Assembly: GCF_900009145.1 (NCBI RefSeq)
Contig: NZ_LN889813.1
Location: 789,875 to 853,874 of the forward strand
DNA from: Planktothrix tepida PCC 9214
GTDB lineage: Bacteria > Cyanobacteriota > Cyanobacteriia > Cyanobacteriales > Microcoleaceae
DNA length: 64,000 bases
Direction of reading: 5' to 3'
Made by a program: the position numbers and the translations under genes. Shown here in pieces: positions 44,181 through 49,349 of the stretch. Under the pieces are notes generated by a model. That model made no database searches. It was not told the origin of the DNA and was given only the letters and a program-made list of their open reading frames with translations. Numbering within the stretch: the stretch's first letter is position 1; each line of letters begins with the position of its first letter.

Positions 44181-47100
44181 ATGACTGAACCCTCTCAACA
44201 GCAGGCTATCCAGAATCTCCAGCGTCAATTCACCAGTCCAGACGTTCAACAACGACTTAAAGCACTTTCAGACTGTCTGAAATTTGATCCAGGCTTGGAT
44301 TTACTAGCGCAACAAGCATTAACCGACCCTTCAGAACAGGTTAAACAATCCGCTTATTGGGTGTTGTATGGTGATAATCCTTATTTAACTGAAAATGTTT
44401 ATTTGAGATCGCCTAATATTGTACCTGAAGATACAATTTCCTCTGTAGCAATTAGTTCAGAACATAAAATTATCATCGGTGGTGGTTGGAAAACTATCAG
44501 AATTTGGAATTTAGAAACAGGAAAATTAATTGATACCCTTGATGCTCATTCCCATTGGGTTTTATCCCTTGCGATTAGTTCTGATGGTCAATATTTAGTC
44601 AGTAGTAGTATTGACAAAATCGTTAAGTTATGGAGTTTAAAAACTAAAACTCTTTTGCATATTTTTACAGGTCATACAAGTTGGGTTAATGTCGTTAAAA
44701 TTACCCCAGATAATCAACGGTTAATTAGTGGAAGTGCAGATAAAACCATTAAAGTCTGGAATTTAGAAAAAAGAGAACTCGTCCATACTTTTAACGGTCA
44801 TACCGGATGGATATCTTCTTTAGCAATCAGTTCCGATAGTCAAGTTTTAATCAGTGGAAGCACCGATAAAACGATAAAAGTATGGGATTTGACCCAAAAA
44901 CAATTATTAAGAACTCTTGAAGGACATTCAGATTGGATTCAAAATGTCGCCATTAGTTCTGATGATCGATCTTTAGTTACAGGGAGTCGAGATGGAACTC
45001 TTAAAATTTGGCAAAAAGATCCCAAAACTCAAGGTAAAAATGAAAATTTTAATATTCCTTTTGTAACCGATGTTTTGAGTTTCTTTTTTGGAAAGAGTAA
45101 TAATGAATCTCAATCTCAATTCCCCGTCAATACTTTAAAATGTGTTAAGACTATTACGGGAAAATTTCAAACCCTGACGGATTTTGATATTACTCCTAAT
45201 GGTAATATTCAAGTGATAGGAACCCATAATGGAATTATTTATATTCAAAGCCCTAATCAATACCCCAATCAATCTCGTAAAATTACAGGTCATGCTGGAT
45301 TTATTGGTTCTATTGCTGTTAGTTCTAATGGCAAATTATTTGTTAGTGGAAGTCGGGATTGGATCAAACTTTTGGATTTGCAAATAGGAAAAGTTTTAGA
45401 GGTTTTAGAAGGTGAGTCTCCTAAACTCAGATCGTTAACAATTAATCCTTCAAAAATAACGTTATATTGTGGTGACTATCAAGAGTTTACTATTCAAGGC
45501 TTTGATCAATATAATAAACCGATTAAAATTGAAAACATAACTTGGACTGCTACAGGGGGAGAGGTCGAAGATGGACTATTCCAAGCCGGAAATACATCAA
45601 ATTCTAACTTTACAGTTCAAGCTAAAGTTAACACGGTTAGTTGTCAAGCGTCAGTTACAATTCGTGAACGACCTAAACTAACATCATTAACCATTAATCC
45701 TACAACAACAACTTTATATTGTGGTAAATCTCAACAATTTAAAGTTGAAGGTTTTGATCAATATAATCAACCCATTAAACTTGATCAAATTAATTGGACT
45801 GCTACAGGAGGAACCATTAAAAACGGATTATTTACGGCTGGAAATTTATCAGCTTCTAACTTTACAGTTCAAGCGAAAGTTAACACCGTTAGTTGTCAAG
45901 CGTCAGTTACAATTCGTGAACGACCTAAACTAACATCCTTAAAAATTAATCCTTCAACAACAACTTTATATTGTGGTAAATCTCAGCAATTTAATGTTAA
46001 AGGTTTTGATCAATATAATCAACCTTTTTCCATCGCACAAGTCCGTTGGACTGCTACAGGAGGAACAATTAAAAATGGACTATTCCAAGCTGGAAATCTA
46101 TCAGGTTCTAACTTTAAAATTAAAGCACAGGTTAACTCAGTTAGTTGTGAAGTTTTAATTACAATTCGTGAACGACCTAAACTAAAATTGTTAACAATTA
46201 ATCCTTCAATCACAACTTTATATTGTGGTGATACTCAACAATTTAGTGCGGAAGGCTTTGATCAATATAATCAACCTTTTTCCATTGGACAAGTTACTTG
46301 GACGGCTGATAATATACAACTTCCTAATAATGGAATATTTATTGCGAGTCGCTTTGAAACAACAGTTACTATTACCGCAAAAGTTGAAACCATTAGTCGA
46401 TCTGTCCAAGTAGAAGTTATTGAACATCCAAGATTAACCTCTTTGATCATTTCTCCATCATTGATAGAAATGTGTCCTGGTCAAAGCCATAAATTTACAG
46501 TTGAGGGTTTAGATCAAAGAGGAAATCCTATTTCAATTGAAAGAGTCAATTGGACTGCTACAGGAGGCAAAATTAAGGACAATGGAAATTATACCGTTGG
46601 GAATAATAGTAAAGGACAATTCACTGTTACCGCTTCAATACCCGGTCAAACAATTAGCGCAACAGCTAAAATTATTGTTCCTTCTATTTTAACTGATCTG
46701 ATTATTTCACCGCAGACTATTTCTGCTGAACCGAATGAACCGATCACGTTTCAAGTCATGGGTTTAGATCAGATTGGAAATTGGATGTGGGTGAATAATA
46801 TTGAATGGAAATGTACCGCCGGAGGTCGAATTAACCCAGAGGGAATTTTTAAAGGAGGTTATGAAAAAGATCTAGTTACTGTAACCGCCAAAGTAGGGTT
46901 ACTTCAAGTTAGTGCAACTGTTCATATATTACCTGTTTTAAGACGAATTCAGATTAATCCTAATCGGAATATTTCTCTTAAACCTAATGAAAGTATAACT
47001 TTTAATGTCGTTGGGTTTGATCAATATGGAAATGAGATTGAAACCGGAAATATTGTTTGGGAAGAAAAAGGGGGAAGAATTGATCAGAATGGGAAATTTA

Positions 47101-49349
47101 CAGCCAAGAATAACGATAAAGGCTCATATCAAGTAAAAGCTAAAGTTTCTCCATTATCTCCGTATGATATTCGCTCAAAAATATTAGCCTTTGGCATTTA
47201 TACAAAATTAATATCTCGGAGTATTTACTGGGCAGAACGGTTATTTTCTCTGAGTGATAACATTCAAAGTGTATTATCGTCTAATTCTGCGGAAACAGAG
47301 ATTGAAGATCAATCTGAAACAACTGATAATATCTCACCCGCTTCTGAGCAAAATTCGTCTTCAGAACTCTTTAATTTTGAAATGGCTGTGCAAGCTTGGT
47401 TGATTAAACAAGCGATTAAAAGAACTATTCGTTTATTAGATTGGGTGGGGAACTCTTGTATTAATTTTGCTCAAATTAGTGATTCTGTTAATATCCAGGT
47501 TATTCCTGTTTTAAGAAGGTTAAGAATTCAGCCAGAACAAGTGGAAATTAAATCTGATCAACATTTTCAATTTGAAGTTACTGGATTTGATCAGCAGGGA
47601 GATTTTATCGAACCTAATTATATTGAATGGGATGCAACAGGGGGAACAATTAATCAGAATGGTGATTTTGTTCCTTCAGCATCCTCTGATGGAAGTTATG
47701 AAATTTATGCTACAGCTATCCCAGAGAATATTAGCGATTTAGCTGAAATTAAAATTGTTCGGGTGACTCAAAAGCCAGATGTTTATATTCCACTACCAGA
47801 TTTTAGTGATAGAAATTCGGGTCAACCCTCTTTCATCGGTGAAGTGATTAAAACGGTCAGTGAAACAATAGATGAAACAATAGAAGATGTTAGAGAAATA
47901 TTGGATAATTCCAAAAATCATCCTAACCCCGAACAAATATCACGTCCAACACCGAGTCCGACTCCACGTGCAACACCAAGTCCAACACCGAGTCCAACAC
48001 CAAGTCCAACACCAAGTCCAACACCAAGTCCAACACCAAGTCCAACCCCAACTCCAAGCCCAACTCCAACACCGAGTCCGACTCCAAGCCCAACTCCGAC
48101 TCCGAGTCCGACTCCAAGTCCGACTCCAAGTCCATCGGTGGCAGGATTTAAGATTGAGTGTATTGAATCGAACACTGATGCACACCGGACTCAGTACGGA
48201 AAATTCGTCTTAGAGCCTTTAGAACGGGGTCAAGGGACGACAGTTGGTAATGCTCTTAAACGGGTTTTACTCTCTAACTTAGAAGGAGCAGCCATTACAT
48301 CAGTACGGGTTGCTGGTGTTAATCATGAGTTTGCAACGATTCAAGGGGTTCGGGAAGATGTTTTAGAAATTCTCCTAAACTTGAAAGAAGTTGTACTCAA
48401 AAGCTATACCCACCAAAAACAAATCGGTCGCTTAGAAATTCAAGGCCCAGCGACGGTAACGGCAGGTCACTTTGAGTTACCTTCAAAGGTTGAGGTCGTA
48501 GACAAAAACCAATATATCGCTACCCTGGCTCCTGGGGCAACCTTGGAAAGGGAATTCCAAGTTGAGAAGGGAACCGGATATCGCGCGATTGAAAGCAGTC
48601 ATGATGCAACGGCTGTAGATTTTCTGCAAATCGATGCGGTGTTTATGCCTGTGCGAAAAGTGAATTATATCGTTGAGGAAGCGCGGTTTGGTGGGAATGA
48701 AGAAAAAGATCGCCTGATTCTGGAAATTTGGACAAATGGGAGTTACACCCCCCAAGAAGCCTTGAGCCAAGCTGCGACAATTTTATTAGATTTGTTTATA
48801 CCGTTAAAAGATATCACACTGGAATCGATTAAAAGCGATCAAAATGATGATATCGATCAAATCTCGATTGAAGAATTAGGGTTATCCGTTCGGGCTTACA
48901 ACTGTCTCAAACGCGCTCAAATCAGTTCAGTGGCAGACTTACGAGATTATACTCAAGAAGACCTCTTAGAAATTAAAAACTTTGGTCAGCAGTCTGCGGA
49001 AGAAGTCATCGAGGCGTTACAAAAACGCTTAGGGATTACATTGCCTCAAGAACGAGCCTCTAAGTCAGCTACGTCAAAAAATATCACCCCGGAATCGATT
49101 AAAAGCGATCAAAATGATGATATCGATCCAACCAGTCAAATCCCGATTGAAGAATTACAGTTATCAGTTCGGTCTTACAACTGCCTCAAACGTGCTCAAA
49201 TCAACTCAGTAAGGGACTTACTAGATTATACTCAAGAAGACCTCTTAAAAATTAAACACCTTGGTCAGCAGTCTACTGAAGAAGTCATCGAGGCGTTACA
49301 AAAACGCTTAGGGATTACATTACCTAAAGAACGAGCCTCTGACTATTAA
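44181..49349 (+). CDS. WD40 - Ig-like - Pro/Thr linker - RNA polymerase alpha fusion protein
   Basis: One open frame of 1722 aa. Residues 1-70 are a short helical cap. Residues 80-405 hold about seven WD40 blades ([20 protein letters not shown], with KVWNL/KIWQ ends). Residues 411-1190 hold eight Ig-like domains repeating every 82-86 aa ([39 protein letters not shown]), with a spacer at 990-1105. Residues 1254-1319 are a TPSPTPSP linker. Residues 1320-1545 are an RNA polymerase alpha N-terminal domain ([32 protein letters not shown]), then two alpha C-terminal domains at about 1558-1630 and 1650-1722. No signal peptide. It is not in a ribosomal-protein operon, so it is a paralogue, not the housekeeping rpoA. 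Function unknown; it could tether to or imitate RNA polymerase. Confidence 0.9.
45641..45937 (+). repeat. Near-identical DNA repeats of Ig-like domains
   Basis: Segments beginning TTAGTTGTCAAGCGTCAGTT recur at about 45641 and 45888 with almost no changes, and weaker copies follow near 46140. They mark recent tandem duplication of the Ig-like unit of about 250 bp. Confidence 0.75.
47946..48135 (+). repeat. CCAAGTCCAACA-type low-complexity coding repeat
   Basis: More than 25 copies of a six-base unit (CC[AC]AG[TC] alternating with CCAAC[ACT]) encode the Ser-Pro-Thr-Pro linker between the Ig-like and RpoA parts. It is prone to length change by slippage. Confidence 0.9.

What the first reader, a model, noticed from the sequence alone, without database searches (positions are those of the whole stretch)
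44181..49349. RNA polymerase alpha subunit fused to a WD40 propeller and Ig-like domains
Seen: one uninterrupted 1722-codon frame carries a WD40 propeller, eight Ig-like units, a TPSP linker and then an RpoA N-terminal domain plus C-terminal domains. Known: RpoA is normally a separate gene of about 315 residues in a ribosomal-protein operon; I know of no described fusion of this kind. Inferred: the alpha part is a second copy, captured downstream of a large repeat protein. It could dimerise with or imitate alpha, bring the propeller to RNA polymerase, or act as an inhibitor.
Basis: partly seen in the sequence, partly recalled or inferred. Interest (0 to 1): 0.93.

Follow-up and report, generated by a model that had tools for sequence, protein, structure and literature searches.

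The report
Scaffold with swappable RNA polymerase parts
In this cyanobacterium one long gene joins a propeller-and-Ig scaffold to a spare copy of an RNA polymerase subunit, and relatives of the gene carry other polymerase subunits at the same end, so the protein likely docks on, or would imitate, the cell's transcription machine.

Summary
The open frame at 44181-49349 (1722 aa) reads WD40 propeller, eight Ig-like units, a (TPSP)n linker, then a complete RpoA N-terminal domain and two C-terminal domains. It is not an assembly join: contigs of 5.46 and 4.78 Mb in two other Planktothrix genomes carry it. It is not the cell's only alpha: a normal rpoA sits in the ribosomal-protein operon. The join lies 8 bases upstream of rpoA's GTG start, without its Shine-Dalgarno.

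The larger finding: the same gene family carries different RNA polymerase parts at its C-terminus. Among 33 loci: alpha 4, alpha CTD alone 1, sigma70 5, full-length beta 1; elsewhere a beta C-terminal piece, sigma regions 3-4, and omega in Microcoleaceae. Other members end in a second propeller, an acidic 'WFYRSQLFYDGYS' tail or nothing recognisable; no other domain was recognised (16 tails by profile, 1 by homology, 16 by eye).

Fused alpha and sigma are under purifying selection, and the locus shows exchange between species. Best reading (inferred): the captured subunit docks the scaffold on RNA polymerase, perhaps in conflict with phages. Main rival: it is bait for phage proteins that seize the polymerase. 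Function is untested. Nine paper searches listed no description of this family.

The parts
44181..49349 (+). Whole fusion gene, 1722 codons
   Evidence: homologous fusions in other genomes
44181..44429 (+). N-terminal segment before the propeller (helical, HEAT-like by eye; not assigned by a tool)
   Evidence: translation
44430..45419 (+). WD40 propeller (limits approximate)
   Evidence: Pfam PF00400 2.2e-55
45420..47800 (+). Eight Ig-like (Big-type) units, counted by eye; the first 3.4 as a 252-base tandem repeat
   Evidence: predicted Ig/S-layer/LigA-like fold of residues 849-1219
47169..47471 (+). Predicted hairpin of two 40-residue helices inserted at the seventh Ig unit
   Evidence: AlphaFold2 model, mean pLDDT 78
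47944..48134 (+). (TPSP)n linker repeat, 12-base units
48130..48142 (+). Capture junction GTCCATCGGTGGC, shared with the leader and start of the housekeeping rpoA; the rpoA Shine-Dalgarno is not included
48138..48794 (+). RpoA N-terminal domain (GTG at 48138 corresponds to the rpoA start codon)
48837..49025 (+). RpoA C-terminal domain, copy 1
49110..49304 (+). RpoA C-terminal domain, copy 2 (tandem duplication, period 279)

Best explanation
The protein joins a WD40/Ig scaffold to a captured spare copy of RNA polymerase alpha, and that copy likely serves to dock the scaffold on RNA polymerase. Shown: one gene family carries alpha, alpha CTD alone, sigma70, beta (and in Microcoleaceae omega) at the same C-terminal place; separate housekeeping alpha and sigma genes exist in the genomes checked (the separate rpoB of the beta-tailed genome reads with a disrupted frame); the fused alpha and sigma parts are under purifying selection. 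Inferred: because any one of several subunits of a single machine will do, what is selected is membership of, or contact with, that machine; the subunit is incorporated into, or held by, the polymerase and carries the propeller and Ig rod to it. Inferred more weakly: the purpose is conflict with phages that take over transcription, since the gene is patchy, exchanged and tail-swapping, and other cyanobacterial and defence proteins also carry sigma or alpha-CTD modules.
For: Tails of 33 loci in 31 genomes (30 found by the Ig-part model among 388 genomes of the order, plus G008; a second locus each in G000 and G003): alpha 4 (G000, G001, G002, G004), alpha CTD alone 1 (G005), sigma70 5 (G003, G008, G009, G171, G233), beta 1 (G018), omega-like but weak 2 (G011, G206), WFYRSQ-type tail 6, second WD40 propeller 11, no recognised tail 3. 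Outside that set: sigma in P0011, P0112, P0123; sigma regions 3-4 in P0035 (Limnoraphis robusta); beta from residue ~394 to the end in P0034; omega in L120 (Microcoleaceae UBA9251) and unnamed P0029, P0031, P0037. P0011, P0034, P0035, P0112 and P0123 share both the WD40 and the Ig parts with P0001. Independent captures: the sigmas of G171/G233 lie outside the SigA clade that holds those of G003/G008/G009; the two beta fusions start at different points. dN/dS of fused alpha pairs 0.13-0.40 (6 pairs, Fisher p 2.7e-3 to 1.1e-5), of fused sigma pairs 0.05-0.11 (3 pairs). G001 against G002: the housekeeping rpoA NTD differs by 1 N and 1 S change, the first 290 codons of the fusion by 32 N and 26 S, so the locus was exchanged. 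Precedent read: GreA/B-C conflict proteins predicted to act on hijacked polymerase (PMC8195603, section 7).
Against: No binding, expression or phage data. The alpha CTD alone (G005) and sigma regions 3-4 alone (P0035) should not replace a subunit in the enzyme. Fused alpha is relaxed: 10, 6, 3 and 8 changes in G000, G002, G001 and G004 at 147 columns invariant in 13 housekeeping RpoAs (G001 also lacks the first 9 of those columns), against 0 in eight and 1 in one of nine Planktothrix housekeeping copies left out in turn; of two other genera tested so, G018 had 1 and G011 4. Most family members (22 of 33 loci, 20 if the weak omega calls count) have no RNA polymerase part. No defence gene was recognised among 7 neighbouring genes except an HNH gene with weak PtuB similarity.
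Confidence: 0.5

Rival explanations
1. Bait (integrated decoy): the captured subunit is not built into the enzyme but is bound or modified by phage proteins that seize RNA polymerase; the scaffold then sequesters them or triggers a response.
For: Truncated tails occur (alpha CTD alone in G005; sigma regions 3-4 in P0035). In multi-CTD copies residues recalled as DNA contacts are changed: K298Q in both G000 CTDs, N268T and S299N in two of three G002/G001 CTDs, while R265 is kept (residue roles and numbering recalled). Tail swapping, exchange and patchiness. Other cyanobacterial sigma fusions carry a NERD nuclease plus TPR (P0109), a precomputed PDDEXK domain PF12705 (P0110, P0116, P0120, P0121, P0128) or an AAA ATPase with MzaA-like sigma (P0143). 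Phages are known to attack host RNA polymerase (PMC12409349, passages).
Against: No effector domain seen in the WD40/Ig proteins; no phage partner known; the same CTD residues are unchanged in the single CTDs of G004 and G005 and the first CTD of G002; fused sigma is kept nearly intact (4, 10 and 10 changes at 283 columns invariant in six SigA), more than a bait may need.
Confidence: 0.3
2. Recombination by-product: the proline-repeat linker is a hot spot that picks up pieces of conserved, highly expressed genes; the RNA polymerase tails have little function.
For: Microhomology GTCCA between linker repeat and rpoA leader at the junction; a transposase-like gene interrupts the G003 copy; recent 99.4% identical beta capture in G018.
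Against: Purifying selection on alpha and sigma tails; recurrence of RNA polymerase parts, and no other recognised domain except WD40 in the tails looked at; the Microcoleaceae omega and the G171/G233 sigma are diverged, hence probably old.
Confidence: 0.12
3. Trans-dominant regulator: the fused subunit enters the enzyme and alters or inhibits transcription itself, with the scaffold as a steric block or membrane anchor.
For: Complete NTD collinear with solved alpha; hydrophobic stretches in some members (G018, G001, G005, G171); bacteria with two alpha genes can form heterodimers (Francisella, PMC3294249, title and start of abstract seen).
Against: Would not explain why beta, sigma and omega serve equally, nor the alpha-CTD-only member.
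Confidence: 0.08

Closest known systems
EAD10 / GreA/B-C conflict proteins (PMC8195603, section 7 read)
   Same: Multidomain proteins of bacteria including cyanobacteria that carry an RNA-polymerase-association module and repeats; predicted to act on polymerase hijacked by viruses
   Different: Their module is GreA/B-C, not a copy of the cell's own polymerase subunit; they have nuclease or other effectors and TPR repeats, which are not seen here
MzaA of the MZA system, and BREX PglW
   Same: Defence-system proteins with a sigma70 (MzaA) or alpha-CTD-like (PglW) module (passages)
   Different: Only the CTD part of P0001 matches PglW, and P0001 has no MzaA match
Francisella alpha1/alpha2 RNA polymerase
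   Same: A second rpoA besides the first
   Different: Two free alpha subunits forming a heterodimer, not a fusion (title and start of abstract only)
Natural beta-beta' fusions (Helicobacter, Wolbachia) and engineered bacterial two-hybrid baits on alpha or omega (recalled)
   Same: Polymerase subunits tolerate fusion; alpha or omega fusions tether proteins to polymerase
   Different: The first joins two subunits, the second is artificial; here nature uses alpha, beta, omega and sigma on one scaffold

Membership tests
Bacterial RpoA (alpha subunit) | NTD and CTD profiles above curated cut-offs | tested here: met
   TIGR02027 410 bits, NF003516 561 bits
Bacterial RpoA (alpha subunit) | Gene in the ribosomal-protein operon, about 315 aa | tested here: not met
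   The operon copy is elsewhere (G000:C46); this one is the end of a 1722-aa protein
Bacterial RpoA (alpha subunit) | Dimerises and assembles into the core enzyme | not testable with these tools
   Sequence collinear with 8gzg and 8syi; no binding data
MZA / BREX defence proteins | Match beyond the sigma or CTD module, and system partner genes | tested here: not met
   PADLOC on P0001: only WD40 (HEAT-ARM_XIII) and CTD (PglW) stretches; 1 of 7 neighbouring genes matched anything, an HNH gene with weak PtuB similarity
STAND/NLR-type conflict receptors | NTPase domain | tested here: inconclusive
   None in the 25 of 54 Pfam families shown for P0001; the other 29 were not displayed
Polymorphic C-terminal (toxin-tip) proteins | Constant N-part with exchangeable C-terminal modules | tested here: met
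Polymorphic C-terminal (toxin-tip) proteins | C-terminal toxin domain with an immunity gene | tested here: not met
   In the 16 tails scanned with Pfam the recognised domains are RNA polymerase parts, WD40 or the Ig units; immunity gene not tested

The most novel reading that the evidence does not exclude
Cyanobacteria have an immune-type protein family that uses captured copies of the host's own RNA polymerase subunits (alpha, beta, omega, sigma) as interchangeable integrated decoys for phage transcription-takeover proteins, with tails swapped between strains as in an arms race.
Probability: 0.3. Interest if true: 0.95.

Novelty: categorically new. Interest (0 to 1): 0.86.

Why it matters
RNA polymerase subunits are among the most conserved genes of the cell and, to my knowledge, are not known as swappable domains of accessory proteins. 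A scaffold that acquired different subunits of one machine on several occasions is a natural 'Rosetta stone': it predicts a physical link between an unstudied propeller/Ig protein family and transcription, and gives a testable route to a new kind of polymerase-associated, perhaps anti-phage, system in bloom-forming cyanobacteria.

Tried and rejected
Assembly join: rejected, same fusion inside contigs of 5.46 and 4.78 Mb. Only alpha of the cell: rejected. Internal translation start giving a free alpha: unlikely, because the housekeeping Shine-Dalgarno is not part of the captured DNA; not tested by experiment. Plasmid or phage source: no megablast match of the scaffold DNA in the plasmid collection; the alpha part's best matches in plasmid and phage records are all below 60% identity. 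The WFYRSQ tail as a general sorting signal: in 61 genomes the only matches at E below 1e-3 were in family genes (3 matches). Omega in the Lyngbya-type and Snowella tails: weak, not counted as shown. With a model of 15 housekeeping omegas the Snowella tail (L134) had E 0.064 and P0014 1.9, and the Lyngbya aestuarii tail (P0021, L122) was not listed; Pfam puts the P0021 tail just at its cut-off (26.0 bits); NF001574 did not find the G011 and G206 tails in a genome search. Fold search of the Ig/hairpin model gave mainly Ig, S-layer and cadherin-type hits in the 50 rows shown and no lead for the hairpin. Nine paper searches listed no description of this family; beyond the listings I saw passages of PMC12839542, PMC12409349, PMC9523054 and PMC8195603, and section 7 of PMC8195603. 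(protein collection, alpha region, 947-3013 aa) did not list the 1705-aa alpha fusions of G001 and G002; unexplained. The tail tally uses one locus per genome (two in G000 and G003); weaker paralogues were not read. Rows dropped: 17 rpoA genes not recovered by my pattern; in the sigma tree six group-2-type sigma loci and P0011, P0130, P0139.

Full report
Observation. The frame at 44181-49349 is open for 1722 codons. It holds a WD40 propeller, eight Ig-like units (counted by eye), a (TPSP)n linker at 47944-48134, and an RpoA part with one NTD and two CTDs. The alpha part passes curated RpoA cut-offs and aligns collinearly with alpha chains of solved cyanobacterial polymerases (8gzg, 8syi).

Not an artefact, not the only alpha. 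The genome (6.78 Mb, 99.85% complete) has a second rpoA, 89% identical, in the usual operon. In 10 genomes of the genus searched, the fusion is an intact frame in the window's genome, G002 and G001, with three CTDs in the latter two. In G004 it is split over two contigs that break in the linker repeat, with one CTD before a stop. In G005 only one CTD follows the linker. The other five showed only a housekeeping rpoA or, in the 73% complete G006, no match. Contig lengths and record titles identify G002 as P. rubescens PCC 7821, G003 as P. paucivesiculata PCC 9631 and G004 as P. serta PCC 8927, so the genus is Planktothrix. In a 388-genome sample of the order no further row with an open frame above 500 appears among those listed (the list was cut).

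How it was made. All nine Planktothrix housekeeping rpoA genes looked at read GGGAGGTCCATCG|GTGGC; the fused copies of G000, G002 and G004 read CCAAGTCCATCG|GTGGC (G001 has another join). Homology therefore starts within the ribosome-binding leader, at a GTCCA that the linker repeat also contains, and the Shine-Dalgarno is left out. The fused NTDs form one clade (100/100) beside the rpoA of five Planktothrix genomes (98/99) in a tree of 4 fused and 13 housekeeping sequences (17 further rpoA genes were not recovered by my pattern). One capture, later spread, is the simplest reading.

The same gene carries other polymerase parts. The scaffold searched alone led to G008 and G009, whose proteins continue through the same kind of linker into a sigma factor with regions 1.2 to 4 (RpoD model 681 and 694 bits), and to G018 of another genus, where the Ig part runs into a full-length RpoB (TIGR02013 1718 bits). 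Upstream of the G018 gene lies the same neighbour as in the window (by eye; recalled as DUF4336). A genome scan with organism names, a 388-genome sample of the order and a protein search gave the rest. Tally of 33 loci in 31 genomes: alpha 4, alpha CTD alone 1, sigma 5, beta 1, omega-like but weak 2, WFYRSQ-type tail 6, second WD40 11, none 3. Sixteen of the tails were assigned by profile search, the G003 sigma by homology, the other 16 by eye. The G003 copy has lost its N-part to an inserted transposase-like gene. Outside the tally: omega in L120 (Microcoleaceae UBA9251) and three unnamed proteins (E 5e-8 to 1.4e-7 among 35 tails and 3500 shuffles), sigma regions 3-4 in Limnoraphis robusta, a beta C-terminal 670-residue piece in P0034 (79% identical to the G018 beta), and sigma in P0011, P0112 and P0123. 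In a sample of 386 genomes of the phylum, the 10 with the scaffold at E <= 1e-30 all belong to this order.

Housekeeping copies elsewhere. G003, G008 and G009 each have a separate SigA that matches the G009 fused sigma at 96%, and G171 and G233 have SigA too (89%). G018 has an rpoB in the usual operon, 15 mismatches in 3267 aligned bases from the fused one, but it reads with small gaps that break its frame. Because the rpoB of its sister genome G019, for which no second copy was found, also reads in two frames, sequencing error is likely. The housekeeping omega of the Microcoleaceae genome was not looked for.

Independent captures (inferred). Alpha in Planktothrix, sigma in Planktothrix, sigma in G171/G233 (a pair with 99/98 support, separated by a 100/100 branch from the SigA clade), SigC-like sigma in Limnoraphis, two beta fusions with different starts and Microcoleaceae omega make at least six. 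The Planktothrix fused sigmas as a clade have only 80/80 support, and P0112/P0123 are not resolved from them. Polymerase and sigma genes are about a dozen of several thousand (recalled), so random capture would not be expected to repeat them.

Selection and exchange. Fused alpha pairs have dN/dS 0.13-0.40, fused sigma pairs 0.05-0.11, housekeeping sigma about 0.01-0.02, and housekeeping rpoA pairs of the genus 0.02-0.16 apart from one near-identical pair (0.31 from two changes). So the tails are kept, with relaxed constraint. G001 and G002 are almost identical in rpoA (1 N, 1 S change) but differ by 32 N and 26 S in the first 290 codons of the fusion. Over the 21 pairs of seven Planktothrix genomes the scaffold dS is lower than the rpoA dS in 16 and higher in 5, which fits exchange between species. 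Planktothrix rubescens protein P0002 shares its first 170 residues exactly with the PCC 7821 fusion but ends in the WFYRSQ tail. The locus recombines between strains and species.

Anatomy between. The conserved part of the scaffold includes two predicted 40-residue helices inserted at the seventh Ig unit (AlphaFold2, 15 sequences, mean pLDDT 78, pTM 0.53). Fold comparison shows Ig/S-layer/cadherin-like domains. A simple hydropathy scan finds no membrane segment in the window's protein, though some relatives have one.

Mechanism. One scaffold joined to several different subunits of one complex argues that contact with that complex is what counts. I commit to docking on RNA polymerase (0.5). The bait reading (0.3) explains the truncated tails and the altered recalled DNA-contact residues in several CTDs at least as well. 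A link to phage conflict rests on analogy: cyanobacterial nuclease-sigma and ATPase-sigma proteins, the sigma factor MzaA (passage in PMC9523054), the alpha-CTD-like domain of PglW (passage in PMC12839542) and GreA/B-C conflict proteins (section 7 of PMC8195603). None of these was shown to share the scaffold, and the neighbourhood is not an evident defence island.

Verdict. The finding is real, conserved within a genus, and part of a wider pattern that nine paper searches did not turn up. Function is untested.

Noticed in passing
L251 and L117 (G018): The operon rpoB of G018 reads with a disrupted frame while the fused rpoB is intact; probably sequencing error, but if true the fusion would be the only intact beta.
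   Followed up: partly
P0109, P0110, P0116, P0120, P0121, P0128, P0143, P0190: Other large proteins, several named as cyanobacterial, carry sigma70 modules with a NERD nuclease and TPR, a PDDEXK domain (precomputed Pfam), or an AAA ATPase (P0143); P0109 and P0143 have no blastp match to the WD40/Ig scaffold.
   Followed up: partly
P0093: FHA-VIT-vWA protein with an alpha CTD about 76% identical to the window's.
   Followed up: no
P0080: A 1345-aa protein with repeated RpoA NTD and CTD-like segments in one frame.
   Followed up: no
L253:2003-3103: A transposase-like gene (IS630-like by eye) interrupts the sigma-tailed copy in P. paucivesiculata PCC 9631.
   Followed up: no
L106 (G000:C59:274500-280500): A second family member in the window's own genome with the acidic WFYRSQ tail instead of alpha.
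   Followed up: partly
window:49507-51055: Downstream neighbours: an antitoxin-like gene (recalled as DUF433), a second short gene whose frame is shorter than in G004, and an HNH gene with weak similarity to PtuB (2.1e-10).
   Followed up: partly
L292 (G011:C12:29363-29575): A second free omega gene (98.7 bits, 88-aa frame) in the genome whose scaffold protein has a weakly omega-like tail.
   Followed up: no
L021 (G008 housekeeping rpoA): It shares the stretch GTAITSARFANVNHEFATI with fused alphas of G001, G002 and G004, which suggests gene conversion between fused and housekeeping copies.
   Followed up: no
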